DNA from: Acidobacteriaceae bacterium
GTDB lineage: Bacteria; Acidobacteriota; Terriglobia; Terriglobales; Acidobacteriaceae
NCBI GenBank assembly: GCA_030041045.1
Contig: JASHOQ010000131.1
Coordinates: forward strand, 1 to 64,000
Length of the DNA: 64,000 nucleotides
Direction of reading: 5' to 3'
A program made the position numbers and the translations under genes. Within the stretch, counting starts at the first letter, position 1. Every line of letters starts with the position of its first letter. The notes beneath the pieces were generated by a model. That model saw nothing but the letters and a program-made list of their open reading frames with translations. It was not told the origin of the DNA and searched no databases. Below, one piece after another: positions 16,558 to 53,991 of this stretch.

Positions 16558-17520
16558 TCATACGGCCAGCGCCGATTGAATGGAATAGTGGACGTAATAG
16601 CGGTAGATGAGCTCGTGGATGTGCACGCACTGCTCGCGGATGGTGTGCAGAAAAGCCGCCGGATCGGCGGAGAGGATTTCGCCGATGGTGGTAAAGCCAA
16701 GCATGGCGTGGAGGCGGCCGATGGCGGCGGTGAGCTCGCCCGGAGGCCGGCGCCCGCCCGACTGCTGGATGGATTGAACGGCGTCGCGCACGCCTTCGAC
16801 GCAGTAACGGATGGCGTGGGGAAAATCGCGGTTGAGGAGGAGAAACTCGAGGATTCGGCCGGGGGCAACATCAGCGGTGTAAACCTGGCAGTAAGCCTCA
16901 AACGAAGTGCAGCAGCGCAGCAGGCCCACGAGCTCAAGATAGAGATGGCCGGTGCTCGCCTCGGCGGTCTGATGAAAAAGGTCGGGCTGGTAGACCTCGA
17001 GCAGCGTGGCCGTGGAGTAAGCGCGTTCCAGATAGCGTCCCAGGCGGATGAACTGCCAGCCCTGGCCGTGAATCATGGTGGTGTCAGTGGTGCCTTTGAA
17101 GAGATAGATACCGTCGATGATGGAGGCCAGCGTGTCACTGACGCTGGAGCCGAACTGCGCCTGCGCGTGCGGCGAGTGAATCTGGTGGAAAAGACGGTTG
17201 AGGCGCTGCCACTGCTCGGTGGAGATTTCCTCGCGCACCTGGCGGGCATTTTCCCGCGCCGCGTTGACGCAGTAGGTAACCGATAACGGATCGAGCCGGT
17301 CGAAGACCAGCTTGCGCGCCATGGCCTCAAGCGAGCCGTCCCAGGCCAGTCCCACCGCGTTGCCCAGCGCGGCGGCCATGCGCTGCCAGCGCTCGCGCGC
17401 GTGCGCGCCGCCGCCGTCGAGCATCAGGCTCATGGTCACGTCGAGCTGGCGCGCGGTGTTCTCGGCCCGCTCCAGGTAGCGGCTCATCCAGTAGAGGCTG
17501 TCGGCAACGCGGGAAAGCAT
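16558..17520 (-). CDS. Alpha-E domain-containing protein
   Basis: A 320-residue all-helical protein starting at ATG 17520 with the family opening MLSRVADSLYWMSRYLERAE; GGGAG lies 10 bases upstream. An upstream in-frame ATG at 17562 lacks a ribosome site. Other family features are NAARENARQVREEISTEQW and FIRLGRYLERAYSTATLLEV. Alpha-E proteins occur next to circularly permuted ATP-grasp enzymes and transglutaminase-like proteins, as here (ATP-grasp upstream, transglutaminase downstream), and are thought to act with them in an uncharacterised peptide ligation or modification pathway. Confidence 0.92.
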   Translation of the reverse strand: MLSRVADSLYWMSRYLERAENTARQLDVTMSLMLDGGGAHARERWQRMAAALGNAVGLAWDGSLEAMARKLVFDRLDPLSVTYCVNAARENARQVREEISTEQWQRLNRLFHQIHSPHAQAQFGSSVSDTLASIIDGIYLFKGTTDTTMIHGQGWQFIRLGRYLERAYSTATLLEVYQPDLFHQTAEASTGHLYLELVGLLRCCTSFEAYCQVYTADVAPGRILEFLLLNRDFPHAIRYCVEGVRDAVQSIQQSGGRRPPGELTAAIGRLHAMLGFTTIGEILSADPAAFLHTIREQCVHIHELIYRYYVHYSIQSALAV

Positions 17521-17562
17521 AAAGTGTGGGCTCCCTGTTGAACCGGTGTGCGTGGCGGCCAT

Positions 17563-17939
17563 GATGTTTTTGCCGCGTCCACGCGTGAAGATTCGTGCAT
17601 GGATGCGGTTCGATTTCCTCTCCTGTTAAGTGCGGCGCCTGGTCCGGGCTTTATTCAATCCCCCGGCGCCTGAAGCCATTCCGTGCGAAGCTGAAAAGTT
17701 GACTTTCGCGGCCCGGTTCCTTCGCCCCTACGGGGCTGGCATTTGCCTTTGCGCTGTTCCCAGGATCTCGTTCGCTGCGGCGAACTCCATCCTGGGCTAT
17801 TCTCGCGGCATCCCTCCGGGATGCCCCCCTCCCTAGCCGACACGGCATCTGCGACTTCTCGCGGCTGAACTGGGCCCCCCAACTTGTTCCTCGATGCTTT
17901 CCGTGGCGGCTGAAGCCGTTCCCTTTCAAAGCTCACGCG
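17563..17939. repeat. Repeat-rich gap between the ATP-grasp and alpha-E genes
   Basis: No gene is seen. Three repeat motifs are recognisable: CGCCCCTACGGGGC near 17723, a long imperfect stem GTTCCCAGGATCTC ... CATCCTGGGC near 17757-17798 followed by GGCATCCCTCCGGGATGCC (17808-17826), and a half copy of the GGCTGAAGCCGTTCCCTTTCAAA repeat near 17906-17930. The CCTGGGC/TAGGGA-type pieces resemble the repeats at 47760-47930. This is an unusual 400-bp break in an otherwise conserved gene trio. Confidence 0.7.
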
Positions 17940-19400
17940 CTATTCCAGAACCCATGTGTCCTTGCTGCCCCCGCCCTGCGAGGAGTTGACCACGAGCGAG
18001 CCCTTCTCCAAGGCCACGCGCGTCAGGCCGCCGGGGACGATGTTGATCTTGTCGCCGAAGAGGATGTAAGGCCGCAGATCCACGTGGCGCGGCTCCAGGC
18101 GCTCGCCGATGAGGCAGGGAGCGCGGGAAAAATCCAGCGTGGGCTGGGCGATGTAATTGCGGGGATTGGCCTCGATCTGGCGCGCGAACTCCTCGCGCTG
18201 CCGGGCCGTGGATTGCGGGCCGATGAGCATGCCGTAGCCGCCGCTCTCGCCCACGGCCTTGACCACCAGCTTGTCGAGATGGGCGAGCACGTGCGCGCGC
18301 TCCTTCTCTTCGCCCAGCAGAAATGTTTCCACATTGGGAAGAATGGGATCCTCGTTGAGGTAGTAGCGGATCATGCGCGGGACGTAGGCGTAGACGGCTT
18401 TGTCGTCGGCCAGGCCGGTGCCGAAGGCGTTGGCAACGGTGACGTTGCCGGCGCGGTAGGCGTTGAACAGGCCGGAGCAGCCGAGGGCGGAGTCGGCGCG
18501 GAAGATGAGCGGATCGCTGAAGTCGTCGTCCACGCGGCGATAGATGACGTCGACGCGCTTGAGGCCGTCAGTGGTGCGCATGTAGACGATGTTGTCGTGC
18601 GTGACCAGGTCGCGGCCTTCCACCAGGTCGATGCCCATCTGCCGGGCGAGGTAGGTGTGCTCGAAGTAAGCGGAGTTGAAAACCCCCGGGGTGAGCAGGA
18701 CGATGTTCGGTTCCGGGCGGCCTTCGGGCGCGAGCGAGCGCAGCGTGGCCAGCAGCAACTGCGGGTAATGCTCGATGGGCTTGACGCCGTAACTCTGGAA
18801 GAGCAGGGGGAAGGTGCGCTTCATGACGCGGCGGTTGGTGAGCATGTAGCTCACGCCGGAGGGAACGCGCAGATTATCTTCGAGGACGACGAAATCGCCG
18901 TTCGCCAGGCGCAGCAGGTCGCTGCCGACCACGGCGATGTAGACGTTGCGCGGCACCTGCAGGCCGCGCATCTGGCGGCGGTAATGCTTGCAGCTGTAAA
19001 CCAGCTCGCGGGGAATGACGCGGTCCAGGAGGATTTTTCCGTCGGAGTATACGTCGCGCAGAAACAGGTTGAGCGCGGTGATGCGCTGGGTGAGGCCGCG
19101 CTCGATGCGGTCCCACTCGGCGGCCGTGACCAGGCGCGGCAGAAGGTCGTAGGGAAAGATGCGCTCGGTGCCTTCTTCGCGGCCGTAAACGGTGAAAGTG
19201 ATGCCCTGGGTGAGAAAGGCGAGGTCGGCCGACTGCTTGCGCCGCTCAAGTTCATCGGCGGGCAGGCGGGCGAGGGTTTCGGCCAGTGCGCGATAGTGCG
19301 GGCGGACTTCGCCGCCCGCCTCGCGCATCTCGTCGAAGGCGCGGTCGAGGGGGTAATCGCCGAAAAGCGCGTCCAGTTCGACTGCAGGTCCGGCGCTCAA
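17940..19400 (-). CDS. Circularly permuted ATP-grasp type 2 protein (DUF404/DUF407)
   Basis: A 486-residue ATP-grasp ligase-like enzyme. The start is TTG at 19400, chosen because AGAGGAG stands five bases upstream and the resulting length fits the family; the frame is open to 19508. Characteristic stretches are [21 protein letters not shown], split here as family motif, [65 protein letters not shown] and [11 protein letters not shown] at the end. The enzymes are predicted to make an amide bond from ATP and two peptide-like substrates, but no substrate is established. It leads the alpha-E/transglutaminase set. Confidence 0.92.
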
Positions 19401-19626
19401 GGGTGCTCCTCTGTGCGGGCTCGGGAATCGGAAATCACAGGCGGCGAAGAAACGGCGATGCTGAGGCGCGCGCTGCGCCGCAACTTGCCCTGCCCGGATT
19501 TCGAGCAAGCTCCGCCTGTGCCCTGTTCTTCTGTTTCTACCATGGAGGGAATAAAGGAGCCATCAGGAAGAGCGGGGAGGGCCGCATGGGTGGGCTGCGA
19601 TAGGCTTATCTCTCAGGAGAATGTGC

Positions 19627-21699
19627 ATGAAAAGGATGTGGTTCCGGCTTGCTTTGGCCAGCGGGCTGGCTCTGGGAGTTCTGGCGCAAGCGTATGCAGA
19701 GGAGGGAATGTGGACCTTCGACAATCCCCCGCTCAAGGACCTGGCGGCGAAATATAACTTCACGCCCACGCAGGCGTGGCTCGATCATCTGCGCCTCTCG
19801 AGCGTGCGGCTGAACGACGGAGGCTCGGGATCGTTTGTGAGCCCGGACGGGCTGCTGCTGACCAATCATCACGTGGCGCGGCTCCAGCTGCAGAAGAACT
19901 CGACCGCGGAGCACGATTATCTGCGCGACGGTTTTTATGCGGCTACCGAGGACCAGGAGATGAAGTCGCCCGACCTCGAAATCAACGTGTTGGTGGGCAT
20001 GAAGGAGGTGACCGAGCGGGTGGAGAGCGCGGCCAAGGGGATTGCCGATCCGGCGCAGGCGCTCAAAGCGCGGCAAGCGGAGATGGCGGCCATTGAAAAG
20101 GAGAGCAAGGACGCGACCGGCCTGCGCTCCGACGTGATTTCCCTTTATAACGACAGCGAGTACTGGCTTTACCAGTACAAGGCCTATACCGACGTGAGGC
20201 TGGTGTTCGCGCCCGAGGAGCAGGCGGCATTCTTCGGCGGCGATCCGGATAATTTTACCTATCCGCGCTACGACCTGGATATGGCGCTGTATCGCGTGTA
20301 CGAGAACGGCAAGCCGCTGCATACGGAGAACTATCTGAAGTGGAACTCGAAAGGTGCGGCGCCGGGCGACCTGGTGTTTGTTTCCGGCAATCCGGGATCG
20401 ACTTCGCGGCAGGAAACGATGGCGCAACTGCTGGTAGAGCGCGACATCGTGGATCCGGACTTTCTCGAACTGGTCGAGCGGCGCATACAGGCCGAGCAGG
20501 AGTTCGCCAGGCAGGGAGCGGAGCAGGCGCAGAAAGTGGACAGCTCGATTTTCTTTTACCAGAACGACGTGAAGGCGATCGCGGGCGAACAGGAGGCGCT
20601 CGAGGACAAGGGAGTGATTGCAAAGAAGCAGGCTGAAGAGGACGAGCTGCGCGCCAAAGTGGCGGCGAATCCGGAATGGCAGCGGGAATACGGCGATGCC
20701 TGGGACACGATTGCGCAGGTGGAGGAGCAGGCGAAGCCGGAGTTGACGCGGCAGATCTTCCGGCGCAGCGGCAGCCAGCTTTTCTCGTTTGCGCTGGAGA
20801 TCGTGCAATATGTGGCCGAAGTAAAGAAGCCGGATGGCGAGCGGCTGCCGGAGTATCACGAAGCGGGCTTGAGCTCGCTCCGGTTCCAGATGCTTTCGCC
20901 GGCGCCGATTTACCCCGACGTGGAAAAGCTGGACATGACCACGACGCTCAAACTGGCCACGGAGAAGCTTGGCGCAAGCGATGCCTACGTGCAGGCCCTC
21001 ACGCAGGGCGGCAGCATTGAGCGGGCCGTGGACGCGCTGGTGGATGGGACCAAGCTCTACGACCCGGCGGTGCGCAAAGCGCTGCTCGATGGCGGCGAGG
21101 CGGCGGTTGCGGCGTCGACCGATCCGATGATTGAGGCGGCGCGCCGCGTGGATCCGATCGCGCGGGCGCAATACGTTTACCTGCGCGACCACCTCGAGAG
21201 CGTACTGCAGCTGGCGGAGGAAAAGATCGGCAAGGCGCGCTTTGCCGTCTACGGCAAGAATGCGTATCCGGACGCGACCTTTACACTGCGCCTGAGTTAC
21301 GGCACGGTGGAGGGTTATCCCTACAACGGGACGCAGGCGCCGCCGTTTACCACCTTCTACGGTCTCTTTGACCGCTCGGCCGGCTTCAGCAACAAATCTC
21401 CCTGGGATTTGACGCCTAAAGAAGCTGCGGCCCTGGGCAGACTGGATCTTGCCACGCCGATGAATTTTGTGTGCAGCGACGATATCATCGGCGGCAATTC
21501 CGGTTCGCCGGTGGTGGACCGCAACGGCGACCTGGTGGGGCTGATCTTCGACGGCAATATCGAGTCGCTGGCCGGCGATTTTGTTTATGACCCCGAAAAG
21601 AACCGCGCTGTGGCCGTGCACGCGGCGGCCATGATGGAGGCGCTGCGCAAGATTTATGGAGCCGATGCGCTGGCGGACGAGATCGAGGGCAAGCAATAG
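19627..21699 (+). CDS. S46 family serine dipeptidyl-peptidase (DPP7/DPP11-like), exported
   Basis: A 690-residue periplasmic serine peptidase that removes dipeptides from oligopeptides. A signal peptide (MKRMWFRLALASGLALGVLA, cleavage after QAYA) is followed by EEGMWTFDNPP, the typical S46 opening. The catalytic His is in LLTNHHVARLQLQ and the Ser is in DIIGGNSGSPVVDRNG; the Asp lies in the central part. AGGAG is 7 bases before the ATG at 19627, while the ATG at 19621 is too close to it. The length fits DPP7/DPP11 (~700). The residue that sets specificity could not be assigned by eye. It is the first of five exported proteins in this region. Confidence 0.93.
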   Translation: MKRMWFRLALASGLALGVLAQAYAEEGMWTFDNPPLKDLAAKYNFTPTQAWLDHLRLSSVRLNDGGSGSFVSPDGLLLTNHHVARLQLQKNSTAEHDYLRDGFYAATEDQEMKSPDLEINVLVGMKEVTERVESAAKGIADPAQALKARQAEMAAIEKESKDATGLRSDVISLYNDSEYWLYQYKAYTDVRLVFAPEEQAAFFGGDPDNFTYPRYDLDMALYRVYENGKPLHTENYLKWNSKGAAPGDLVFVSGNPGSTSRQETMAQLLVERDIVDPDFLELVERRIQAEQEFARQGAEQAQKVDSSIFFYQNDVKAIAGEQEALEDKGVIAKKQAEEDELRAKVAANPEWQREYGDAWDTIAQVEEQAKPELTRQIFRRSGSQLFSFALEIVQYVAEVKKPDGERLPEYHEAGLSSLRFQMLSPAPIYPDVEKLDMTTTLKLATEKLGASDAYVQALTQGGSIERAVDALVDGTKLYDPAVRKALLDGGEAAVAASTDPMIEAARRVDPIARAQYVYLRDHLESVLQLAEEKIGKARFAVYGKNAYPDATFTLRLSYGTVEGYPYNGTQAPPFTTFYGLFDRSAGFSNKSPWDLTPKEAAALGRLDLATPMNFVCSDDIIGGNSGSPVVDRNGDLVGLIFDGNIESLAGDFVYDPEKNRAVAVHAAAMMEALRKIYGADALADEIEGKQ

Positions 21700-21936
21700 A
21701 AAAATGCGGGCGCCGGCAGGCGCAGGTCGGCGAGCGGCTGGTGCGGCGTGAAAGCCAGGAATTCGTTTGCCTTGGCCCTGCAGAAGACGTTGGTTCTGAA
21801 TCCGTTCGTTCCGTGAAGTCTTCCCTCCACTCCGGTCCGGAGCAAATCTCCGCTTGAAATCCTCCCTCGCGGCGGCGTAAGATGCGCCATCTGCTTACCG
21901 CTTCGCCCACATATCCCGGGAGGGAGTCGAACCGCT

Positions 21937-24900
21937 GTGTCTTTTTCTGCGTTGTACTTCGCATCCTGTTCTGCGCTCCGTTCCACGTCGCGACCGTCGC
22001 TGCGTTCGATCCGCTCCAGGGTTGCACGGTGCGGAACAATTTCGCTTGCAGCAATCCTCTGCACCCTTGCCGCTGCGTTGCTGTCCGCCGTGCCGCAACC
22101 AGCCCGCGCGCAATTTGACCGCTGGTACCAGCTCAGCGAGCAGGCCGTGCAACTCAAAGGCCAGGGCAAGAATGCGGATGCGCTTCCGGTCGAGCAGCAG
22201 GCCGTGCAAGTGGCTCAATCCACCTGGGGTCCGGACGACGCGCACGTAGGCTTGTCTTTGAACCTCGAAGGCATGCTGGAGATGGACCTCGAGAAATACA
22301 GCGACGCGGAGACCCATCTCCAGCGCGCGCTCGAAATCTTTACCCGCGCAGAAGGCGGCACCAGCAGAAACACGGCCGGTGTGCTCAACAACCTGGGTGT
22401 TCTTTACGGGCATCTCGCCAATTATCCTGAGGCGGAGAAGGCCCTATCCCAGGCGCTCGCCATCGAGGAGAAGCTCCTGGGCGACAACGATCCCACCATT
22501 GCCACCGACGCCAACAACCTGGCCCTCATTTACATGAAGGAAGACAAATACGTCGACGCCGAAGCGCTTTACAAGAAGGCCATCGCCATCGACCAGCGGC
22601 TGGGCCGCACGGACTTGAGCATCGATCTCGGCGGACTGGGGACAGTCTACGAGCAGATGGCCCGCTATTCCGACGCCGAGCAGGCATTCAACCAGGCGCT
22701 CGCGGTGGATCTGAAGGCGCTCGGACCCAACCACCCGCAGATCGGCATGGATCTCTACCACCTGGCGCAGGCGTACCAGTTCGAAGGCAAATTTGCCGAC
22801 GCGGAGCAGACTTACGGCAAGGCCATGGTGATCGAGCAGAAGACGGGCGCGCAGGATCCGGCCACCATCTCTTTCATTGAATCGGACATGGGTGACCTTT
22901 ACCGTGCCGAAGGCAAATACCCCGCGGCCGAATCCATGTTGCTGCAGGCGCTCAAGAGCCGCGTGCAGGCCCTGGGGCCGAACCATCCGGATGTGGCCAG
23001 CGACCTCTCGGGCCTGGGCCTTCTCTACGAATACGAGTTCCGTTACAGCGATGCCGAGCGGGCCTTTCAGCAGGCGCTGCAAATCGATATGAAGAGCCTC
23101 GGACCGCAGAATCTGCAGACGGCCAAAGCCATGATCGATCTCGCCAACCTCTACGGAACGCACGGCGAGTCCGGCGCCTCCGAGCAGTTGTTCTATAACG
23201 CCATCCAGATTTTTCTCAAAAGCCCCGGGCAGGTGGAAAAGCGCGTGGCGAGTGTTGTCTTTGAGGGGGCGCAGCAATTCCTGACCGATGGGAAGCTGGA
23301 CACGGCGGCCAAGCTGTTTAATTCGGCGGGCGGCATCTACCAGCACGTGGAAGGCGACGCGGGCCTGGATGTGGCGAAATGCCAGGCCAATCTTGGCGCC
23401 ATTGCCGAGGACATGGGCCGTCACGACGATGCCGAGCGGCTCAACCGGGAGGCGCTCGCCACCTTCGAAAAGCTATCCGGACCGGACTCGCTCGACCTGG
23501 TCATGCCGCTCGAAGGCCTGGGGAAAACCCTGAAAGACGAGCATCGCTTTGCCGATTCCGAGCCCTTCTACCAGCGCGAGCTCAAGATCGATCAGGCACA
23601 ATTCAAGCCCAACGATCCCGGGCTGCGCGACGCCGAGGCCGACCTCGCCGCTCTCTATTACGTGTGGGACAAGCCGGAGCAGGCCGCGCCCTTCTTTCAG
23701 GCCTATCTCGGCAACCTCATGGACGAGTTCCGCCTGAACGCAGCTACGATGAGCGAGCGCGAGCGCATGATTTACTTTGCCACCGAGCGCTGGGCCTTTC
23801 CGCTGTTTTTCAGCTTCGTGCTCAAGTTTCACCAGCAGATGCCGGAGCTCAGCGGGCAGATGTACGACGCGCTGCTCGAGGAAAAGGGCATGTTCGCCGC
23901 GAGCGCCACGGCCATGCGCTCGGCCATTGAGAACAGCGGCGATGCGCAGGCGCTGCAGATGCTGGACAAGCTCTCGAGCGACAAGGCGCAGCTGGCCGCG
24001 CTGGCCGAGTCAAACACCGCCAACCATCAGGATCAGATCAACCAGCTCGGCGCGGAAGCCAACACCCTGGAGCAGGAGCTGCTCAAGCGCTCGGCCGTTT
24101 TTGTACGGCAAAAAGGGCAGAACGCCGCTACCTGGCGCGACGTGCAGAAGGCATTGAAGCCGGGCGAGTCCGCCGTCGAAGTTACGCGCTTTCCCTTCGA
24201 CGACGGCTTCGCCGGAGGAGGCGACATGATCTACGTCGCTCTCGTGGTCACGCCCGATTGCAAGCAGCCCATCTTCATCCTTCTCGGCAAGGCGAGCGAT
24301 TTGGAGTCCGCGCCCCTGCTCGCCTTCCGAACCGACGTGGGCCAGACGCGCGGCGTCGAGGCCGAAGCAGAGCCTGCGGCTCCGGGCCAGCCTCCGGCAT
24401 CCCCACCCAATACCACCGCCGCGTATACCGCTTTCTGGAAGCCGCTCGAGCCTGCGCTGAGCGGTGCGAAGCGCGTTTACTTTTCGCCCGACGGCGTGCT
24501 CAATACCATCCCCGTCGGCCTGCTCGCGGACGCCGACGGCAAGCTGGTGATGGAAAAAGTCCAGCTCCGCCTGGTCAACAGCACCAAGGACATTCTCGTT
24601 CCCGCCGGCTCAGCTCCAACCAAGGCCGCGCTGCTGGTCGGCAATCCTGCCTTTGCTCTCAGCGCGGCGGAGCAGCAGTCGGCCCTCGCGCAGTTACGCG
24701 GAGGTGCAGATCCGGCTATGGCTGCGCAAGCGGGCGATACAGCGCGGAACACGAACGCGGGCGCGGCCCAGTTCACTGGGCGCGGCGGCGACTTGAAGGG
24801 TGGCGATCTCAAACCCCTCCCCGGCACGCAAATCGAAGTCGACTCCGTCGACAAGCTGCTCCAGGGCGCGGGATGGGGGCCGAGCGAATTCACCGGCAAT

Positions 24901-25482
24901 CTCGCCCTCAAGCAGACCATCACCCAGGCGCGCGGCCCGCGCATCGTCCACATCGCCACGCACGGATTCTTCCTCTCCGACGAAGTGCTCAAGGCCACGG
25001 CGGAATCGCAGGGACGCCAGGCCAACCTCAACGAAGATCCCATGCTGCGCTCGGGATTGTTCTTTGCCGGCGCCGATCGCGTGCGCGAAGGCGCGCCGCC
25101 CGGGCCGGGCCCCGACTCTGGTATCGACGACGGCGTGCTTACCGCCTATGAGGCCAGCCAGCTCAATCTTCAGGGCACGGAGCTGGTGGTGCTGAGCGCA
25201 TGCGAAACCGGCCTGGGCGAGCAGCTCAACAGCGACGGCGTCTTCGGCCTGCGCCGCGGCCTGCAGGAGGCCGGCGCCGAAGCCGTGATGATGAGCATGT
25301 GGTCCGTCCCCGACCAGGAGACGCAGGAGCTGATGTCGCTCTTCTACGCCAAATGGCTCTCCGGCATGGACAAGCCCGAAGCCCTGCGCCAGGCTCAACT
25401 TGCCGAGCGCGAAGTGGTGCGTAAGCGCTACGGCAAAGACCTTCCTTACTATTGGGGCGCCTTTGTCATGGTCGGCCCCTGA
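21937..25482 (+). CDS. Exported TPR-CHAT domain protein (caspase-clan peptidase)
   Basis: An 1181-residue protein starting at GTG 21937 (GGGAGGGAG about 10 bases upstream). Residues ~1-58 are a long signal peptide ending PQPARA/QF. Residues ~65-600 hold roughly ten TPR units of the 42-residue kinesin-light-chain type (ALPVEQQAVQVAQSTWGPDD, ALAIEEKLLGDNDPTIATDA, ALAVDLKALGPNHPQIGMDL). A coiled region follows, then a CHAT domain from ~760. Its likely catalytic dyad is His1009 (IVHIATHGFFLSDE) and Cys1089 (ELVVLSACETGLGE), with the terminal YYWGAFVMVGP typical of CHAT. CHAT proteins are caspase-clan proteases such as separase and the craspase protease. Here the protein is predicted to be outside the cytosol and its neighbour is a second caspase-clan protein. 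Confidence 0.93.
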   Translation: MSFSALYFASCSALRSTSRPSLRSIRSRVARCGTISLAAILCTLAAALLSAVPQPARAQFDRWYQLSEQAVQLKGQGKNADALPVEQQAVQVAQSTWGPDDAHVGLSLNLEGMLEMDLEKYSDAETHLQRALEIFTRAEGGTSRNTAGVLNNLGVLYGHLANYPEAEKALSQALAIEEKLLGDNDPTIATDANNLALIYMKEDKYVDAEALYKKAIAIDQRLGRTDLSIDLGGLGTVYEQMARYSDAEQAFNQALAVDLKALGPNHPQIGMDLYHLAQAYQFEGKFADAEQTYGKAMVIEQKTGAQDPATISFIESDMGDLYRAEGKYPAAESMLLQALKSRVQALGPNHPDVASDLSGLGLLYEYEFRYSDAERAFQQALQIDMKSLGPQNLQTAKAMIDLANLYGTHGESGASEQLFYNAIQIFLKSPGQVEKRVASVVFEGAQQFLTDGKLDTAAKLFNSAGGIYQHVEGDAGLDVAKCQANLGAIAEDMGRHDDAERLNREALATFEKLSGPDSLDLVMPLEGLGKTLKDEHRFADSEPFYQRELKIDQAQFKPNDPGLRDAEADLAALYYVWDKPEQAAPFFQAYLGNLMDEFRLNAATMSERERMIYFATERWAFPLFFSFVLKFHQQMPELSGQMYDALLEEKGMFAASATAMRSAIENSGDAQALQMLDKLSSDKAQLAALAESNTANHQDQINQLGAEANTLEQELLKRSAVFVRQKGQNAATWRDVQKALKPGESAVEVTRFPFDDGFAGGGDMIYVALVVTPDCKQPIFILLGKASDLESAPLLAFRTDVGQTRGVEAEAEPAAPGQPPASPPNTTAAYTAFWKPLEPALSGAKRVYFSPDGVLNTIPVGLLADADGKLVMEKVQLRLVNSTKDILVPAGSAPTKAALLVGNPAFALSAAEQQSALAQLRGGADPAMAAQAGDTARNTNAGAAQFTGRGGDLKGGDLKPLPGTQIEVDSVDKLLQGAGWGPSEFTGNLALKQTITQARGPRIVHIATHGFFLSDEVLKATAESQGRQANLNEDPMLRSGLFFAGADRVREGAPPGPGPDSGIDDGVLTAYEASQLNLQGTELVVLSACETGLGEQLNSDGVFGLRRGLQEAGAEAVMMSMWSVPDQETQELMSLFYAKWLSGMDKPEALRQAQLAEREVVRKRYGKDLPYYWGAFVMVGP

Positions 25483-25502
25483 GAGCTTCACAAAAATTTC
25501 GT

Positions 25503-25530
25503 TTGACAGCGGTTGCGAATGATTTATTCT
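25503..25530 (+). promoter_or_regulatory. Sigma-70-type promoter upstream of the C14 gene
   Basis: TTGACA at 25503-25508 and TATTCT at 25525-25530 with a 16-base spacer make a near-consensus housekeeping promoter in the gap after the CHAT gene. Transcription would start near 25537, leaving a leader of about 140 bases before the ATG at 25677. This implies that the C14 gene can be expressed independently of the CHAT gene. Confidence 0.65.
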
Positions 25531-25676
25531 TGGATCACCCCCGCCTTACAGCATTCCCGGGAATCGTGCGAGGTTTTCGCCGGAGGGCCAGACCGCTTGT
25601 TGTGTTGGCGCTGGCCTGGGTGGACCGGTTTCTGCCCTGCAACCTTTCCAGGATCGCTGGAACTTGAGGCGTTTGC

Positions 25677-28343
25677 ATGAAAGTTCACCCGGTAGCAGCT
25701 CTTACCGCTCTGGCTGCCGTGCTCGCGTCTGCGCCTTTGCCGTCCCAGACGGGAGGGCAGGCAGGCGGCGCGAAACACGCCCTGCTGGTGGGGATTGACC
25801 TTTACGAACCGACCGGAACCCAGGCGCAGCATCCATCCGGATGCCACGGCGGCCGCTGTGATCTGCCCGTCTTCAAGAACCTCGATGGCCCTCTCAACGA
25901 CGTGGCCGCGATGCGCGACCTGCTGAGCAGCCCCAAGTTCGGATTCGATCCCAAAGACATTGTGGCGGTGACCAACCCGGCGCTGCCGGCCGCGCAGCTG
26001 CCGTTCGTCAATCTGCCGGCTGAGGAAACCGCGCATGACGGGCTGCTCAAGGCCATGCAGAAATACCTCGTCGATGTTCCGCAGAAGGGCGACACGGTGG
26101 TGTTTTACTACGCCGGGCACGGCTCTCTGCGCGTGAACAGCCAGGGCACGAAGATGGCGATGCTGGTGGACGGCAAGCCCAGCCACGCCGACAGCACGCT
26201 GGTGCCTTCAGACGCGTGGACGGGCAACTTCGACATTCGCGACCGCGAGATGACGCGCATCTTCAATGCGGCGCTGGATAAAGGAATCAAGCTGACGGTT
26301 TTGCTCGACAGTTGCCATAGCGGCTCGTTTACGCGCGGCGTGGAGATGGGCAAGCAATACACGGAGCGTTCGCTGGGCTACGATCCGCGCGACATCAACG
26401 AAGCGCCGGACCTGCTGGCGAACGGCGAGGAAGCGCCGGCGCCCACGGAGCGCAAGGCGAATCCGGCGCTGGTGTTCTCAGCCGCGCAGCAGGACCAGAC
26501 GGCCAAGGAGCGCGACTTCGGCGACACGCCTTCGACCACGGTGGCGCACGGCGCGTTCACGGTGGCGCTGATCAAGGCGCTGGAGGTGCTGCCGGCCGAT
26601 GCCCCGGCTTCCGACGTGTTTCGGCAGGTGAGGGCAACCCTCGAGGGCGAGCAGGTGGGCGACCAGACGCCGGCCATGGACGCCAGCGCAGACCGGTTGC
26701 GCGAGCCGCTGTTCGGCGGCATGAAAGCCGACGTGGGCAAGACGCGCGCCGCGGTGATCGGTGTGGACGAGGACGAAGGCACGGTGCTGCTCGATGCGGG
26801 CAAGCTTTCCGGCATCGACGCGGGAAGCGAGTTTACGTCTCTGAGCGCGGACAGCGAGGGACGGCACACGAAGCTGAAGGTCGATAGCCTGGACGGGCTG
26901 ACGCACGCGACGGCGAAAGTGGTGACGCCGCTCAAGGCGACGGTGACGGTGGGGCAGGTCTTTGAGATGAGCAAGTGGGTGCCGAGCGAGATTGACACGC
27001 TGCACGTGTGGACGTGGCCGGCAAACCTGAGCCTGCAGGCGATTGAGAGCACGGTGGAGCAGGTGAAGGCCTCGGGTGTGACCGCGGTCGACGACCCGGT
27101 GGAGAAGCCGTGGAGCGACATGCTGGCATGGAACGGCTCGGCGTGGGAGCTGCGCCACGCCGGACGCACGGCGGACACCAGCGTGGGCGCGACGCTGACG
27201 GCGGATGCGATCCAGACGGCGGCGAACGGATTTGCGCGGCTGTGCGTGGATGAGACCCTGAGCGCGGATGAGAAGCAGGCGCTGGCCGCGGTGAAGAGCC
27301 CGGCGATCTCCTATCAAACAGACGTGAAGGGATGCGAAACGTTTCTGCTCAAGCAGAACAGCGCGTGGATGATTCGCCACGTGGAGCTGGCTTCCACGAA
27401 GACGCTGGGCGCGACCGTAAGCGCAGCGGCCCTGAAGCAGGCGCTGGGCGCGGATGCCAAGCTCTGGGTGAACTTGCCCCCGCCGCAGGAACTCGCAGCG
27501 AAGCTGGCGCTACACGTGGACGGCAGCCTGGTGAAGGGCGTGGACGACGTGGCCACGGCGGACTACATCCTGGCCGGCAGCCTGAGCGACGACGGACCGC
27601 AGTGGGCGTGGTTCCACAAAGCGGAGTACGCGGCCGGGCCGCGCGCTGCCCAGACGCACGATCACAGCCCGGGGTGCTCCACCAGTTCCAAATATCCCGT
27701 AGCCAGCGACTGGGTGGTGCTCGCCGATCCGGCGTCGGCTGGCGATGCCAGCGCGGTGCTGAACGGCTATGCCGAGCGGCTGGCCAAGGTGAATGGATGG
27801 CTGAACATTGCCGACAATCTTTCGGGCGCCTCGGATGCCGAGTATTACAGCCTGGTCTTCAAGCGCGTCACCGATCAGTCGGTGCTTCCGGAGGGCGTAG
27901 CGGCGAAGCAGAATGAGCGCTTCAAGATGTACCTGAGCTCGGACGACCAGATCATCGAGAAGCGCTGGGTGTATGTGCTGGATATCGACTGCCACGGCAA
28001 GGGGTCGCTGTTATATCCGGCGGATACGGCGGACAACCGCTTCCCCAACGATGCCGACACGCCCATGCAATTCGTGCTGCCGGGCGCGCCCACGCTGCAC
28101 ATCGTGGCGCCCTTCGGCGTGGACACCATTCTGCTCATCAGCACGCAGGAACCGCTGCCCGATCCGTCAGCGTTGAATTTTGAAGGAGTGGGCACGCGCG
28201 GGGGTGGGAGCGCATCGACCAACCCGCTGCAGCAATTGCTTTCCGGCGCCAGCGCGGGAACGCGCGGGGCGGTCGCGGAGATGCCGACCAACTGGAGCAT
28301 CGATGCCACCACGCTCGAGAGTGTTCCCGAGGGAGCGAAGTGA
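25677..28343 (+). CDS. Exported metacaspase-like C14 peptidase with DUF4384-like C-terminal domain
   Basis: An 888-residue protein. Residues 1-27 form a signal peptide. The caspase-like domain (about 33-345) opens with KHALLVGIDLYEP, has the catalytic His148 in VVFYYAGHGS and the Cys213 in LTVLLDSCHSGSFTRG, and includes a conserved FSAAQQDQTAKE segment. The middle contains an SH3-like GTVLLDAGKLSGIDAGSEFT and two similar modules (WELRHAGRTADTSVGATL; WMIRHVELASTKTLGATV), suggesting an internal duplication at about residues 490-510 and 563-580. The last ~150 residues match DUF4384 (WVYVLDIDCHGKGSLLYPAD). It lies between the TPR-CHAT gene and a Tat-exported unknown protein, with four bases of frame overlap possible with the latter. 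Substrate and activation are unknown. Confidence 0.92.
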   Translation: MKVHPVAALTALAAVLASAPLPSQTGGQAGGAKHALLVGIDLYEPTGTQAQHPSGCHGGRCDLPVFKNLDGPLNDVAAMRDLLSSPKFGFDPKDIVAVTNPALPAAQLPFVNLPAEETAHDGLLKAMQKYLVDVPQKGDTVVFYYAGHGSLRVNSQGTKMAMLVDGKPSHADSTLVPSDAWTGNFDIRDREMTRIFNAALDKGIKLTVLLDSCHSGSFTRGVEMGKQYTERSLGYDPRDINEAPDLLANGEEAPAPTERKANPALVFSAAQQDQTAKERDFGDTPSTTVAHGAFTVALIKALEVLPADAPASDVFRQVRATLEGEQVGDQTPAMDASADRLREPLFGGMKADVGKTRAAVIGVDEDEGTVLLDAGKLSGIDAGSEFTSLSADSEGRHTKLKVDSLDGLTHATAKVVTPLKATVTVGQVFEMSKWVPSEIDTLHVWTWPANLSLQAIESTVEQVKASGVTAVDDPVEKPWSDMLAWNGSAWELRHAGRTADTSVGATLTADAIQTAANGFARLCVDETLSADEKQALAAVKSPAISYQTDVKGCETFLLKQNSAWMIRHVELASTKTLGATVSAAALKQALGADAKLWVNLPPPQELAAKLALHVDGSLVKGVDDVATADYILAGSLSDDGPQWAWFHKAEYAAGPRAAQTHDHSPGCSTSSKYPVASDWVVLADPASAGDASAVLNGYAERLAKVNGWLNIADNLSGASDAEYYSLVFKRVTDQSVLPEGVAAKQNERFKMYLSSDDQIIEKRWVYVLDIDCHGKGSLLYPADTADNRFPNDADTPMQFVLPGAPTLHIVAPFGVDTILLISTQEPLPDPSALNFEGVGTRGGGSASTNPLQQLLSGASAGTRGAVAEMPTNWSIDATTLESVPEGAK

Positions 28344-28347
28344 TGAC

Positions 28348-28368
28348 GAGCGAGTCAGCAAGTCAGCG
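28348..28368. repeat. Short octamer array after the C14 stop
   Basis: Two and a half units (AGCGAGTC, AGCAAGTC, AGCGG) begin four bases after the TGA of the C14 gene. This is the shortest clear member of the stop-codon-associated octamer family. Confidence 0.75.
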
Positions 28369-28444
28369 GCAAGTGGGCGCATCGGGAGAAATGTGGAGTT
28401 TTTTTGAATCAGGAAACAACCGAAAGCCGTGGAGGAAAGATCGT

Positions 28445-29596
28445 ATGAGCATCCGACGCCGTGAGTTTCTTTTGGGCGCCCCTGCGCTGGGCCTGCTGGG
28501 CGCGCTGTTTACGCCCGAGCAACTGCGCGCAATTCAGGACGCGCAGGACCAGAACGCGCAGAGCGAAGCGGCGCAGGAGGAAGAGGAGCTGCCGCACTCT
28601 TCCACCGGATTCTGGGGCGGATTTTACGACCAGGTTAATCCGAACAGTCCCGACTACGGAAAGCCGGAAGCGACGCGCGGCGCCGAAAGCCTGGCCAGCC
28701 CGGGGCTGGAGACGCAGTACCTGCATTACCTGAGTGACGCCAAGCAACTGCGCTATGCCACGTCGATCGACAAGAGCGAGCTGCTCGATCACGACGGCGA
28801 CGTTTCCGTGAGCATTCTCATGAACCAGTTCCGGCCCAGCTCCGAGGATGCCAAGGACAAGAACGCCTCGCAACTGCGCGTGGACACGACGCAGAACCAT
28901 CCCTTCATGAACCTGCTTTCGCCGCTGGCGTGGTCGGCGATGGCCTCGCTCCGGCCGGACAAGGCAGGCCAGATTCCGCCGCTCGATCAACTCGGATTCA
29001 AGTCGGACCAGGTGATGAACTCGTCGAGCCACATTCTGCTCACCCAGGGTAGCGGCAAAGTTGCGGTGAATATTTCGCGCGCGGCCAAGAATTCGGGCTT
29101 CGTGAAGGCGCTGGGGGTGATGGTGGAGGCGGCTAAAATGGCGGCGCCGTTTGTGGCGCTGCCGGCGGTGAGCGTGCCGGCGATGAGCGCGTTTTCCGAG
29201 GCCTTCAGCTATTGGGAGAATCGCACGCAGTTTCTCATCAACGGCAACCTGGTGAACGCCGCGGCCACGCAGCAGGCCATGGACGATCCGGAGCTGCACT
29301 CTCCATTGATCGGGCTGATGGCCGGCGACTATGTGGTGGTAGCCAAGAAGGATACCGACCAGCTGCAAGCTGTGCTGCCGCAGCTGCGCATCTTTCAGGG
29401 CTACCTGGTGCACGCGGATACCGACCTGAACCAGCCGCTGGAGCAGGTGCTTGCCGACAAAAAGATTCCGGATATCACCTACGCAACCGTGAAGGTGGGT
29501 GTGAATCCGATCGATACCTCCGCGGCGAAGGCGAGCCCGGCCGCGGCGGGTGCGGCGGCGAGCGCGAAAGAAAAAAAGAAGTCCAGTAAAGAGTGA
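28445..29596 (+). CDS. Unknown protein with Tat signal, partner of the CHAT/C14 block
   Basis: A 383-residue protein from ATG 28445 (GGAGGAAA seven bases upstream); the open frame extends to 28340 through repeat sequence, which is unlikely to be translated. The N-terminus MSIRRREFLLGAPALGLLGA is a twin-arginine signal, so it is exported folded. No known domain is recognised. The body is helical/amphipathic (NSGFVKALGVMVEAAKMAAP) with a GDYVVVAKKDTDQLQAVLPQ strand region, and the tail is Ala- then Lys-rich (SAKEKKKSSKE). Position between a C14 peptidase and a DUF3857 protein suggests a shared envelope function, as substrate, inhibitor or scaffold, but there is no direct evidence. Confidence 0.8.
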   Translation: MSIRRREFLLGAPALGLLGALFTPEQLRAIQDAQDQNAQSEAAQEEEELPHSSTGFWGGFYDQVNPNSPDYGKPEATRGAESLASPGLETQYLHYLSDAKQLRYATSIDKSELLDHDGDVSVSILMNQFRPSSEDAKDKNASQLRVDTTQNHPFMNLLSPLAWSAMASLRPDKAGQIPPLDQLGFKSDQVMNSSSHILLTQGSGKVAVNISRAAKNSGFVKALGVMVEAAKMAAPFVALPAVSVPAMSAFSEAFSYWENRTQFLINGNLVNAAATQQAMDDPELHSPLIGLMAGDYVVVAKKDTDQLQAVLPQLRIFQGYLVHADTDLNQPLEQVLADKKIPDITYATVKVGVNPIDTSAAKASPAAAGAAASAKEKKKSSKE

Positions 29597-29768
29597 ACGG
29601 GAGGGCGGCGGCGGCGCGCGAGGCGCCGGGGGCGCAGCCGCGCCGGGCGGACATGATGGCTTGCGGGCTGCTCGCCGCCGGCCGGCTGGGTAATCCGATT
29701 TCTCAGGGGTCTGGAGCTGCGCAGAATTCTCGCTCCGGCTTTCCGTTTTCGGAGTACCCTGTGCGTAT

Positions 29769-32700
29769 ATGCGAGATACATTAGGTTCACTTTCCCCGGC
29801 TTTCGCTTTGGCATTCGCCCTGGCTCCCCTTGCCGGACCCGCGCAGACGCCGCCCGCAACGCCTGCCCCCGACGCGTACAAAAATGAGTCCGTCGTCCTC
29901 GAGCGCTCTGAAACCACGTACAAGATGCATGCCGACGGAACCGGCGAGCGCGATGTGCGCGTGATCGCGCGCGTGCAGTCCGACGGCGCCGCGCAGCAGT
30001 TCGGCGTCCTCACCTTTGACTACGCCTCCGCCTACGAGACTCCCGTGATCAAGTTCGTGCACGTGCACAAGGCCGACGGTTCCGTGGTCGATACGCCGGC
30101 CTCGGACGCCATTGACATGCCCGCCGACGTGACGCGCGAGGCGCCCCTCTACAGCGATCTCAAAGAGAAGCACGTGCCCGTGCGCTCGCTGGCCTCCGGC
30201 GACACGCTCGATTACGAGATAGACACCACCATCAACAAGGCGGAAGCGTCGGACGAATTCTGGGGCGCCGACCACTTTACACCTCCGGGCACGGTGATCG
30301 TGCTGGCGGAGATTCTCAATCTTGAAGTTCCCGCGGACAAGTACGTGCAGGTCTGGAGCCCGAACCACAAACCCACGGTGGCGGAGAAAGACGGCGTGCG
30401 CACTTACACGTGGAATGTCGCCCAGCTGGTGACCGCGCCCAGAAACAGCGGAGACGAGAAGGCCGTTCAGCCCAAGGATCCCGATGAGGACGAGGACGGG
30501 CGCAAGGTTCCCTCCGTCGCCTGGACCACCTTCCACAGCTGGGCGGAGGTGGGCGACTGGTATCGCGGCCTGGCGCTCAAGCAGGCGCAGCCGAATGACG
30601 AAATCCGCACCCGCGCCGATGAGCTGACCCGAGACGCGAAAACGCCCGAAGACCAGGTGCAGGACATCTACGACTTCGTTTCTACGCACACGCGCTACGT
30701 GGGCATCGACTTCGGCATCGGCCGCTATCAGCCCCACGCCGCAGGCGAGGTGCTGGCCGATGGCTACGGCGACTGCAAGGACAAGGACACGCTGCTCGAA
30801 TCGCTGCTGCGCGCCAAGGGATTCTCGTCCGCGCCCGCGCTCATCGGCGCCGGCATTGCCCCCGTGCCCGACGTTCCTTCACCTGCCGTCTTCAACCACG
30901 TCATCACCACCGTGAATCTGCCCAGCGGACGCATCTGGCTTGACAGCACGCCGCTCGACGCCCCTTACCGCTATCTCACCGCTGTCATCCGCGACCAGAA
31001 GGCGTTGATCGTTCCCACTGACAAGCCGGCCTCGCTTGAGTCCACGCCGGCCGACGCGCCTTATCCTTTCGCCGCGCGCTTTGAGGCCGACGGCGCGCTC
31101 GACGCCGAGGGCAAGCTCACTGCGAAGATGTCTGCAACTTATCGCGACGACGACGAAGTGCCCATTCGCGCGCTGGCGCGCGGCATGGCTCCCGCGGATT
31201 GGGACAAGGCCTCGCAATATGTCTCCTCGATCACCGGCTTTGGCGGCACCACCAGCGACACCAAGTTCGAAAACGCCGGAGACGCCTCCCATCCCATCGT
31301 GATGACTTACGATTATGCGCGCCATCCCTTCGGCGACTGGGACAATCTCCGCATTGTTCCGCTGTTTCCGGCGCTTGAATTCGCGGCGCTCGACAGCGAC
31401 ACCACCGAGCCCCAGGAAGACATTCAGCTGGGCGCGCCGCGCACGCTCACGGCCATCTCCCGCATCCACCTGCCCGACGGCTACCGCACCGACCTGCCCG
31501 ACCCCATCCACGTAAAGACCGATTTTGCCTCCTTCGACAAGACCTATCGCTTCGAGGAGGGCGAGATCGTGGCCGAGCGCACCATCGTCGTGCTCAAAGA
31601 GAAGGTGCCGCGCGCGGACTGGAAGCAGTACCAGGGCTTTACCAGGGACATCAGCCTCGACGGCGAGCCCTGGATCCAGCTCATCCGGCCGTCGAAGGTG
31701 ACGGCGGCGGCTGAGCCGAAGCTCAACCTGCATCCGCCTGGAAGCGCCGGGTCGGGCAACGATTCGAAATCGTTGCCCCTCCACGTGCAAGAAGTGCCCG
31801 CGCCGGAGAGCCCGTCCGCCGCACCCTCCGTCGCTGCTCCTTCCGGCGAATCGGCCTCGGACCTTATGCAGCAGGCGCAGGACCAGATGAGGGAGGGCGA
31901 CTGGACAGCGGCGCGGCAGACGCTCGACGAGGTGAAGGCCAAGAATCCGGAAGAGGAGAATCTGTGGAGCGGGTATGGAGTGATTGCCGCGGCCCAGCAG
32001 AAAAACTTCGAAGAGGCTGAAGCCGATTTCCGCAAGGAGATCACTGCGCATCCCGACAATGAGCCGGCGGTCATGGCCCTTGCCGGGGCGGAGTCGCAAA
32101 ACGGCGACGCGGCCGGGGCGCAGAAGACGTTGCAGCTATACCTCGCGCGCAATCCGGGCAACATGCGCATCAGTTTGTATCTTGCAGGCCTGGAGCGCAC
32201 CGCGGGCGACTATGCCACCGAGCTGAAGACTCTGGAAAGCGCGGCCGACCAGGCTCCCGACAACCGCGAGATTCGCGTGCAGGAAAGCGAAGCCCTGGTG
32301 CGGCTGAACCGCAATGAGGAAGCGGCTGCCGCGGCCAAGAGCGCGCTCGACGGCGCCGACGACCCCGGCGTACTCAACGATGCCGCCTACGAGCTGAGCG
32401 AGTCCGGCCTCGATCTCGACGTGGCCGAGGAGGCTTCGCGCCGCAGCGTGGAGAAGCAGGAGGAAAAGAGCGCCCAGATGACCACCGAGCAGGCCAACAG
32501 CAACGCTTTCTTCCAGGCCAATCTCCTCATTGCCTCGTGGGACACGCTGGGCTGGATCCTGTTTCGCGAGGGCAAAGTCGACGCGGCCAAACCCTACCTG
32601 AGCGCCGCGTGGCGCGCCGGGCTTGAAGCCGAGGTGGGCGATCATCTGGCCCAGCTCTACGAGAGCCAGGGCCAGAAAGACGAGGCGCTGGCCGCGTACG

Positions 32701-33113
32701 TGCTCGCCCAGGCGGCCGTCACGCGCAATCTGCCGCCCGACGTGCGCGCGCACATCGATGACGGCATCCGGCGCCTCAAAGCCGCGGGCGCCAAGCCGGG
32801 CCCGGCCGACCCCAAGCAGGCCCTGCAGGACCTGCGCACCTTCCAGTTCACGCGTCCGGAAGACGCAAGCGGCTGGGGCGCCTTCCGCCTCGAAATTACC
32901 AACGCCGGGGTGATTCAGTCGCAGCAGATGTCCGGTGAAAAGAAGATCGTGCTTGCCGTGCCCGCGCTCAACAAAATGAAATTGCCGGAGCTGCTTCCGC
33001 CGGACTCGAAAGCGCACCTGCTGCGCAGCGCCGTGGTGGATTGCAACGCGGGAGCCCTCACCTGCAATCTGATCCTGGTTCCCGACGGCGGACTGCAGAC
33101 AGAGCAGCAATAA
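29769..33113 (+). CDS. Exported DUF3857 / transglutaminase-like / TPR protein
   Basis: A 1114-residue protein with a signal peptide (residues 1-25, ending GPAQ). DUF3857 (about 40-230; SETTYKMHADGTGERDVRVI) is followed by a transglutaminase-like core whose triad is visible: Cys in ADGYGDCKDKDTLLESLLRA, His in VFNHVITTVNLP and Asp in RIWLDSTPLDAPYRYL. A beta-rich DUF3858-like part follows, then a low-complexity Pro/Ser linker (about 655-695) and a TPR array (about 700-1000). The linker contains a perfect 10-bp inverted repeat at 31754-31778 that is read in frame. It comes last in the row of exported proteins. DUF3857 proteins are common in Acidobacteriota and Bacteroidetes, without a firm biochemical role. 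Confidence 0.9.
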   Translation: MRDTLGSLSPAFALAFALAPLAGPAQTPPATPAPDAYKNESVVLERSETTYKMHADGTGERDVRVIARVQSDGAAQQFGVLTFDYASAYETPVIKFVHVHKADGSVVDTPASDAIDMPADVTREAPLYSDLKEKHVPVRSLASGDTLDYEIDTTINKAEASDEFWGADHFTPPGTVIVLAEILNLEVPADKYVQVWSPNHKPTVAEKDGVRTYTWNVAQLVTAPRNSGDEKAVQPKDPDEDEDGRKVPSVAWTTFHSWAEVGDWYRGLALKQAQPNDEIRTRADELTRDAKTPEDQVQDIYDFVSTHTRYVGIDFGIGRYQPHAAGEVLADGYGDCKDKDTLLESLLRAKGFSSAPALIGAGIAPVPDVPSPAVFNHVITTVNLPSGRIWLDSTPLDAPYRYLTAVIRDQKALIVPTDKPASLESTPADAPYPFAARFEADGALDAEGKLTAKMSATYRDDDEVPIRALARGMAPADWDKASQYVSSITGFGGTTSDTKFENAGDASHPIVMTYDYARHPFGDWDNLRIVPLFPALEFAALDSDTTEPQEDIQLGAPRTLTAISRIHLPDGYRTDLPDPIHVKTDFASFDKTYRFEEGEIVAERTIVVLKEKVPRADWKQYQGFTRDISLDGEPWIQLIRPSKVTAAAEPKLNLHPPGSAGSGNDSKSLPLHVQEVPAPESPSAAPSVAAPSGESASDLMQQAQDQMREGDWTAARQTLDEVKAKNPEEENLWSGYGVIAAAQQKNFEEAEADFRKEITAHPDNEPAVMALAGAESQNGDAAGAQKTLQLYLARNPGNMRISLYLAGLERTAGDYATELKTLESAADQAPDNREIRVQESEALVRLNRNEEAAAAAKSALDGADDPGVLNDAAYELSESGLDLDVAEEASRRSVEKQEEKSAQMTTEQANSNAFFQANLLIASWDTLGWILFREGKVDAAKPYLSAAWRAGLEAEVGDHLAQLYESQGQKDEALAAYVLAQAAVTRNLPPDVRAHIDDGIRRLKAAGAKPGPADPKQALQDLRTFQFTRPEDASGWGAFRLEITNAGVIQSQQMSGEKKIVLAVPALNKMKLPELLPPDSKAHLLRSAVVDCNAGALTCNLILVPDGGLQTEQQ
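31754..31778. repeat. In-frame palindrome inside the DUF3857 gene
   Basis: GGGCAACGAT and ATCGTTGCCC form perfect 10-bp arms around TCGAA. It falls exactly in the linker between the transglutaminase and TPR regions and encodes Gly-Asn-Asp-Ser-Lys-Ser-Leu-Pro. It looks like a short REP-type insertion tolerated in a linker. Confidence 0.7.

Positions 33114-50603: not shown

Positions 50604-53991
<3,388 letters not shown>

What the first reader, a model, noticed from the sequence alone, without database searches (positions are those of the whole stretch)
19621..33113. Secreted double caspase-clan locus: TPR-CHAT protease, metacaspase-like C14 protein, Tat-exported unknown and DUF3857/transglutaminase protein
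Two caspase-clan proteins, each with an intact His/Cys dyad (His1009/Cys1089 and His148/Cys213), sit side by side, and both carry signal peptides. Known CHAT and metacaspase systems act mostly in the cytosol. They are followed by a Tat-exported protein of unknown family and a cysteine-transglutaminase protein with TPRs, and preceded by an S46 peptidase, so five exported, mostly proteolytic proteins run in one direction over 13.5 kb. This could be an envelope proteolytic cascade (CHAT cleaving C14, or either acting on the Tat protein), a signalling system or a peptide scavenging apparatus. The cascade is inference; domains and order are seen.
Basis: partly seen in the sequence, partly recalled or inferred. 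Interest (0 to 1): 0.75.

Follow-up and report, generated by a model that had tools for sequence, protein, structure and literature searches.

The report
Exported caspase module with Tat partner
A soil acidobacterium and its relatives carry a recurring gene module in which exported caspase-like proteases sit beside an unnamed, separately exported protein that is probably their partner or target, a hint that caspase-type signalling can work in the bacterial cell envelope.

Summary
In detail: five same-strand genes at 19621-33113, with caspase-clan dyads in place in the CHAT and C14 proteins. The five are not one conserved system. The conserved core is C14 (25677-28343) plus the Tat protein (28445-29596), an unnamed family with over 500 homologues. 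A caspase-clan gene lies within 3 kb, same strand, of 25 of 28 Tat-family genes mapped; in two of the three exceptions a contig end cuts off one side. Some relatives carry a fuller set: large C14, Tat protein, an LptE-like protein X, a second C14 and TPR-CHAT. The window's CHAT gene is inserted relative to both nearest relatives, where S46 is followed directly by C14, and C14 keeps its own promoter-like site. CHAT genes of three subfamilies still recur near C14 or Tat genes. In the stretches examined, S46 neighbours the module only in the closest relatives and DUF3857 nowhere else. Best reading: an envelope caspase module whose Tat-exported protein is the cognate partner, most likely the substrate. 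Its model (pLDDT 81) is a largely beta core whose best, sub-threshold matches are C2 domains. Cleavage, location and membrane action are inference.

The parts
25677..28343 (+). Large exported C14 (metacaspase-like) protein, 888 aa; caspase domain 67-336, His148/Cys213; core of the module
   Evidence: homologues adjacent to Tat-family genes in relatives
28445..29596 (+). Tat-exported protein of an unnamed family, 383 aa; core of the module and probable partner or substrate of the proteases
   Evidence: homologues, none named by function in the rows listed; Pfam: only weak, unrelated matches; model and fold comparison
25503..25530 (+). Promoter-like TTGACA-16-TATTCT upstream of C14, identical in both hexamers in the two nearest relatives
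   Evidence: the scan itself finds no more such sites (2) than shuffled sequence does (mean 2.3), so the weight is on conservation
21937..25482 (+). TPR-CHAT protease-like protein, 1181 aa, His1009/Cys1089; inserted relative to the nearest relatives, not a conserved member in this position
21701..25502 (.). Approximate extent of the block absent between S46 and the C14 promoter-like site in G775 and G729
19621..21699 (+). S46 peptidase; local neighbour, found beside C14 only in the two nearest relatives, judged not part of the module
29769..33113 (+). DUF3857/transglutaminase/TPR protein; not found in any other of the 37 stretches mapped, judged not part of the module

Best explanation
This is one variant of an exported caspase-clan module of Acidobacteriaceae-type bacteria. 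Most of the C14 and TPR-CHAT proteins carry Sec-like signal sequences, while the partner carries a Tat signal and so would be exported folded; protease and partner would then meet only outside the cytoplasm. The Tat-exported protein is most likely the cognate target of the proteases: cleaved, and thereby released or activated at the membrane or envelope, when an envelope signal turns on C14 or CHAT. Shown: genes, domains, dyads, twin-arginine motif, recurrent linkage and parallel divergence. Inferred: subcellular place, cleavage, the direction protease-to-partner, membrane action and the trigger.
For: 25 of 28 Tat-family genes mapped (one of the 25 broken) have a same-strand caspase-clan gene within 3 kb. 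One more, G757:C464, lies 454 bp from a C14 hit. The protease type changes (large C14, small C14, CHAT) while the Tat protein stays. C14 matches number 0-5 per genome in 29 genomes and CHAT matches 1-7 in 16 genomes of my choice; these are lower bounds, but chance adjacency is improbable (no formal null computed). C14 and Tat divergences run in parallel, r=0.91, n=14, 0 of 5000 permutations as high. 14 of 15 Tat-bearing genus genomes carry the large C14 and the 15th (G601) has CHAT beside its Tat gene, while six keep the large C14 without a Tat match: the Tat protein seems to depend on the protease more than the reverse, as expected for a substrate rather than an inhibitor. Twin-arginine motif in 27 of 27 N-termini listed.
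Confidence: 0.42

Rival explanations
1. The Tat protein is a regulator, scaffold or membrane anchor of the exported proteases (it binds or restrains them) and is not their substrate.
For: Same linkage and parallel divergence; a C2-like fold would suit membrane anchoring; the long variable low-complexity C-terminal tails look like linkers rather than a conserved cleavage site.
Against: Six genus genomes keep the large C14 without a Tat match over threshold, one of them with a weak 31-residue match at the expected place, which is awkward for an essential restraint.
Confidence: 0.3
2. The CHAT and C14 proteins of the window form a proteolytic cascade in the envelope (CHAT cuts C14 or C14 cuts CHAT) upstream of the Tat protein.
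For: A CHAT gene lies on the same fetched stretch as the large C14 in 12 of 20 genus genomes, same strand in 9 of the 12; three CHAT subfamilies occur there.
Against: The window's CHAT is inserted relative to both nearest relatives and is of another subfamily than the usual module CHAT; 8 of the 20 show no CHAT on their stretch, some because contigs end; C14-CHAT parallel divergence is weaker (r=0.45, 237 of 5000 permutations as high).
Confidence: 0.12
3. Peptide scavenging: the genes are a loose cluster of exported peptidases for nutrition.
For: S46 peptidase and transglutaminase-like protein next door.
Against: S46 and DUF3857 are not conserved neighbours; metacaspases are specific processing proteases rather than digestive ones (general knowledge, recalled); the Tat protein has no peptidase match.
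Confidence: 0.08
4. Linkage without function: an old gene block inherited or moved together.
For: Patchy distribution, 23 of 398 family genomes and 15 of 80 genus genomes; no expression data; no control for species history.
Against: Linkage survives rearrangement: gene order and the kind of protease differ between loci while a caspase-clan neighbour persists.
Confidence: 0.08

Closest known systems
Prokaryotic metacaspases (Peptidase_C14, PF00656), including multi-metacaspase operons and N-terminal signal/TM variants surveyed in PMC3501461
   Same: p20-type domain with His/Cys dyad; more than one metacaspase per gene cluster; some with signal-like N-termini
   Different: That survey lists multi-metacaspase operons only in Alphaproteobacteria, Bacteroidetes, Cyanobacteria and Deltaproteobacteria (section 13 read); no Tat-exported partner is mentioned in the two sections and the passages that I read
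TPR-CHAT / Csx29 of Craspase (type III-E CRISPR)
   Same: TPR repeats followed by a CHAT protease domain with His/Cys dyad
   Different: Signal-like N-terminus here; the only PADLOC match of the window's CHAT at E <= 0.01 is a generic TPR model
Caspase-like processing peptidases of polymorphic toxins (PMC3482391, passages read)
   Same: Caspase-clan protease linked to exported proteins that it may process
   Different: There the peptidase is a domain just upstream of the toxin in the same chain; here it is a separate gene and no toxin domain was recognised
C2 domains (PLC-beta2, PLC-delta1, intersectin, Itchy, Notch ligands)
   Different: Sequence identity 3-12% in those rows; long helical insert and N-terminal helices; below the level at which the tool trusts a match

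Membership tests
Peptidase_C14 / metacaspase | Caspase p20-type domain over the Pfam cut-off | tested here: met
   69.2 bits against a cut-off of 21.4; PDB sequence matches to metacaspase-1 and metacaspase-9, E 1.6e-6 to 3e-5
Peptidase_C14 / metacaspase | His/Cys dyad | tested here: met
   YYAGHG with His148 and DSCHSG with Cys213; both motifs matched by pattern in 17 of 22 large C14 sequences, the window's included; the other five matched only one pattern and were not aligned
Peptidase_C14 / metacaspase | Cleavage after Arg/Lys | not testable with these tools
   needs an assay
NCBIfam NF047832 caspase, EACC1-associated type | Score above curated cut-off | tested here: not met
   34.7 bits against 140
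TPR-CHAT proteins (PF12770) | CHAT domain over cut-off with TPRs and His/Cys dyad | tested here: met
   214.5 bits against 24; dyad aligned in 17 of 17 put in
Craspase Csx29 | Match to a type III-E model | tested here: inconclusive
   PADLOC at E <= 0.01 gives only a generic TPR model for this protein; that the library holds a Csx29 model was not checked
Craspase Csx29 | Association with gRAMP/Cas7-11 and a CRISPR array | not tested
   no search for cas genes or arrays was run
Tat-exported proteins | Twin-arginine motif followed by a hydrophobic stretch at the N-terminus | tested here: met
   RR motif in 27 of 27 N-termini listed
Tat-exported proteins | Export by TatABC | not testable with these tools
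   needs a Tat mutant or reporter fusion
C2 domain | Fold match well above unrelated folds | tested here: inconclusive
Bacterial gasdermin (protease-activated pore former) | Gasdermin fold | tested here: inconclusive
   The fold comparisons do not decide this

The most novel reading that the evidence does not exclude
An envelope-located caspase cascade: up to three different caspase-clan proteases (two C14, one TPR-CHAT) exported with an LptE-like protein, converging on a Tat-exported C2-like protein that acts on a membrane once cut. This would be a periplasmic counterpart of caspase-gasdermin logic, used for self-killing, killing of neighbours or envelope repair.
Probability: 0.13. Interest if true: 0.9.

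Novelty: new variant of a known kind. Interest (0 to 1): 0.62.

Why it matters
Bacterial caspase relatives are usually discussed as cytosolic sensors or death proteases, and few have known targets (general knowledge). A compact module in which exported caspase-clan proteases travel with one unnamed family gives a candidate natural partner for an exported metacaspase and makes it testable with two proteins. It would also suggest a function for an unnamed family with over 500 members.

Tried and rejected
Rejected: the five-gene unit (order not found in the other 36 stretches mapped); a CHAT-C14 operon as conserved design (CHAT inserted, C14 keeps its own promoter-like site); the window's CHAT as orthologue of the usual module CHAT (different subfamily motif).

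Led nowhere or weak: first structure model of the Tat protein from 30 sequences (pLDDT 42.8), replaced by one from 87. PDB sequence search with the Tat profile: 0 matches at E <= 1. Pfam on 13 Tat relatives: only PF02863 in 2 members (best E 0.063) and PF13556 in 1 (E 0.0019), both taken as unrelated. Viral contigs: 51 pattern stretches, none a relative. Viral structure library: one match at E 1.4e-4 to an unnamed Hokovirus protein, TM 0.34-0.39, rmsd 7.9, not followed beyond one paper search. The third homology search listed no functionally named relative in its 120 rows. The downstream flank of the G729 CHAT maps to another contig of the window's genome, but whether CHAT once lay there could not be told; the upstream flank gave only short matches. 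No bacterial gasdermin appeared in the rows printed, which is no evidence of absence.

On re-check two of the 17 four-base X-C14' overlaps (L042, L044) were found doubtful: in L044 the frame from that start meets a stop after six codons, and both proteins have a better start downstream.

Literature: nine of ten searches used. I saw search listings; passages of PMC3501461, PMC5756287 and PMC3482391; and sections 10 and 13 of PMC3501461. No title or abstract start in those listings described this module; subscription journals and preprints are not covered. What I say of Csx29, gasdermin and C2 biology beyond that is recalled.
Full report
What is in the window. The Tat gene should start at the ATG at 28445, not at the longer ORF start 28340: this start gives a twin-arginine signal, and the family aligns from here. 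N-terminal signals were judged by hydropathy and by eye only.

The Tat family. A search with the 383-aa protein gave 531 homologues, 120 listed. Of the listed ones only P0040 carries a Pfam domain, PF04989, in a protein whose C-terminal part is unlike the rest of the family, and the only name beyond 'hypothetical protein' is 'uncharacterized membrane protein YgcG'. Two profile searches gave 251 and 569 hits with the same picture in the 120 rows each listed. Scanning 13 diverse members against Pfam gave only weak matches taken as unrelated; the PDB sequence search gave none. Among genomes, 2 of 396 drawn from the phylum have it, both in the window's family, 23 of 398 of that family and 15 of 80 of the genus. 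Two relatives have public names: MAGs of 'Acidobacteriaceae bacterium', whose contig lengths equal those of G729:C128 and G775:C287.

The module in relatives. I fetched the surroundings of Tat-family genes and of all 20 genus genomes with a large C14 at 160 bits or more (fetched) and mapped the genes by tblastn. A recurrent same-strand set appears: large C14, Tat protein, X (about 350-500 aa, mostly with a signal-like N-terminus, its tail read by eye as TPR-like; of five X proteins scanned one reaches Pfam LptE, 25.4 bits against 23, and the other four match nothing over a cut-off), a small C14 (about 417 aa, motif DTCYSG) and a TPR-CHAT of about 1020 aa. All five are in L034 and L039, and in L097 with broken Tat, X and CHAT frames. 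Shorter forms are C14-Tat (window, L103, L031, L040), Tat-C14 (L041), C14-Tat-X-C14' (L036-L038), Tat-X-C14' (L042-L047), C14-Tat-CHAT (L035), Tat-C14-Tat-hydrolase-CHAT (L032), Tat-Tat then CHAT (L033), CHAT-Tat (L048) and C14-X-C14'-CHAT without Tat (L093, L094, L095, L099, with broken X frames in L094 and L095; L101 runs off its contig after the start of C14'). In 17 of 20 X-C14' pairs the called genes overlap by exactly 4 bases; two of these (L042, L044) are doubtful because the C14' start is, leaving 15 firm, as in translationally coupled genes. In the window's genome neither X nor the small C14 was found beyond weak partial matches.

How regular is the link. Of 28 Tat-family genes (L097 broken, L117 partial), 25 have a same-strand caspase-clan gene (large C14, small C14 or CHAT) within 3 kb. 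In L113 and L117 one side is cut by the contig end, and the side that is seen, 2.4 and 2.8 kb, holds none; in G585 (the genome of L113) an X-C14' pair starts another contig (L114), which would fit a broken assembly. L049 (G453), the most divergent member, is a real exception: 7.7 kb to the large C14 homologue, with another C14 gene by Pfam about 5 kb from the Tat gene. A 29th Tat gene, G757:C464, lies 454 bp from a C14 hit; a partial one, G766:C413, lies at a contig start and was not examined. C14 matches number 0-5 per genome in 29 genomes (28 of 29 have one) and CHAT matches 1-7 in 16 genomes of my choice. Both are lower bounds: one search lists one C14 for G453 where Pfam shows two on L049 alone. 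Neighbours by chance should be rare, but no formal null was computed.

Dependence. In the genus, 20 genomes carry the large C14 at 160 bits or more (six more have weaker matches, left out) and 15 carry a Tat match. Of the 15, 14 also have the large C14 and the other, G601, has CHAT beside its Tat gene. Six have the large C14 without a Tat match: G708, G723, G750, G751, G753 and G769. G708 keeps a 31-residue match at the expected place, weak (19.6 bits) and not over threshold. This asymmetry fits a Tat protein that needs the protease. Draft genomes (two of the six, G751 and G753, are under 80% complete) and shared ancestry weaken the count.

Parallel divergence (first gene of each family per stretch). 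C14 and Tat r=0.91 (n=14, 0 of 5000 permutations as high), X and C14' r=0.95 (n=16, 0), C14 and C14' r=0.82 (n=11, 0), C14 and X r=0.75 (n=9, 24), Tat and X r=0.69 (n=11, 0), Tat and C14' r=0.52 (n=11, 0), C14 and CHAT r=0.45 (n=12, 237), Tat and CHAT r=0.41 (n=8, 425), X and CHAT r=0.87 (n=5, 34), C14' and CHAT r=0.82 (n=6, 71). The low CHAT values include the window's different subfamily. There was no background-gene control, so species history may explain part of it.

The CHAT gene in the window. In G775 and G729, the nearest relatives, S46 is followed after about 120 bp by C14. Blastn similarity to the window stops at the S46 end (21692 and 21700) and resumes at 25664, and the alignment of the gap shows TTGACA-16-TATTCT (window 25503-25530) and the bases after it shared by all three. 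The window carries in addition about 115 bp between that site and the C14 start. So the CHAT block lies between S46 and the C14 promoter-like site. In G729 a CHAT piece 93% identical has no C14 in the 1950 bp after it (L105); in G775 CHAT lies 5.9 kb beyond the Tat gene on the other strand; in G643 it is on another contig. The window's CHAT and its relatives have ATHG, the usual module CHAT has ASHF; the dyad stands in 17 of 17 put in. Even so, some CHAT gene lies on the same fetched stretch in 12 of the 20 genus genomes with the large C14, on the same strand in 9 of them (G775, G753 and G760 differ), and the window type, the L034 type and the L048 type all occur near the module, so the tie between CHAT and the module is recurrent although this copy is a newcomer in its place.

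S46 and DUF3857. Among the 37 stretches mapped, S46 is in the window, G775 and G729 only, DUF3857 in the window only; many stretches are short. Both are taken as neighbours.

How it may work. Sec-like signals on most of the proteases and a Tat signal on the partner mean that the two sides would meet only after export. The protease type varies while the Tat protein stays, and proteases persist without it but it hardly ever stands without them. I therefore read it as the target that an exported caspase-clan protease acts on (0.42), with regulator or anchor as the main rival (0.30). The trigger is unknown; X and the TPRs of CHAT are natural sensor candidates (inference).

What is known. The 2012 survey of prokaryotic caspase homologues reports N-terminal helices that may be signal peptides and 20 multi-metacaspase operons, in four bacterial groups that do not include Acidobacteria, and an Acidobacteria-containing Xanthomonas type with a polysaccharide deacetylase domain (sections 10 and 13 and passages of PMC3501461 read). 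Passages of PMC3482391 describe caspase-like domains that process toxins in the same chain. In nine searches no listed title or abstract start describes an exported caspase module with a Tat partner; the library lacks most subscription papers.

Noticed in passing
window 21701-25502: Insertion of a CHAT gene block between S46 and the C14 promoter-like site relative to the two nearest relatives; no mobile element was looked for at its edges.
   Followed up: partly
L032 5144-10085 and L033 8641-10951: Two Tat-family genes per locus, directly tandem in L033 and flanking the large C14 in L032: the partner duplicates within the module.
   Followed up: no
L097 7679-8633; L093 around 8484-8576: Broken Tat gene in G757 and a weak 31-residue match in G708 at the expected place: the Tat gene may be being lost while the proteases stay.
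   Followed up: partly
L034, L036, L037, L039, L043, L045, L047, L093, L094, L095, L097, L099, L101, L114, L120: X and small C14 genes overlap by exactly 4 bases in these 15 pairs of 20 (two more, L042 and L044, doubtful), a sign of a coupled pair of its own.
   Followed up: partly
L111 5876-8821: The window's genome has a module-type CHAT (60% to the L034 CHAT) on another contig, without C14, Tat, X or small C14 found by tblastn in the 19.9 kb fetched.
   Followed up: no
window 28445-29596 (model m944b123c3bed): Single match at E <= 0.001 in the viral structure library, to an unnamed Hokovirus protein (E 1.4e-4, TM 0.34-0.39).
   Followed up: no
window 48855-53991; L104 15638-18377: An impB/mucB-type (IMS) gene followed by a DNA polymerase III alpha gene; in G643 DNA similar to the latter lies about 6 kb from the orthologue of the window's CHAT.
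   Followed up: no
window 15477-19508, minus strand: ORF trio read by eye (names recalled, no family search) as transglutaminase-like, alpha-E-like and ATP-grasp-like; the last two were seen again upstream of S46 in G775 (L103).
   Followed up: no
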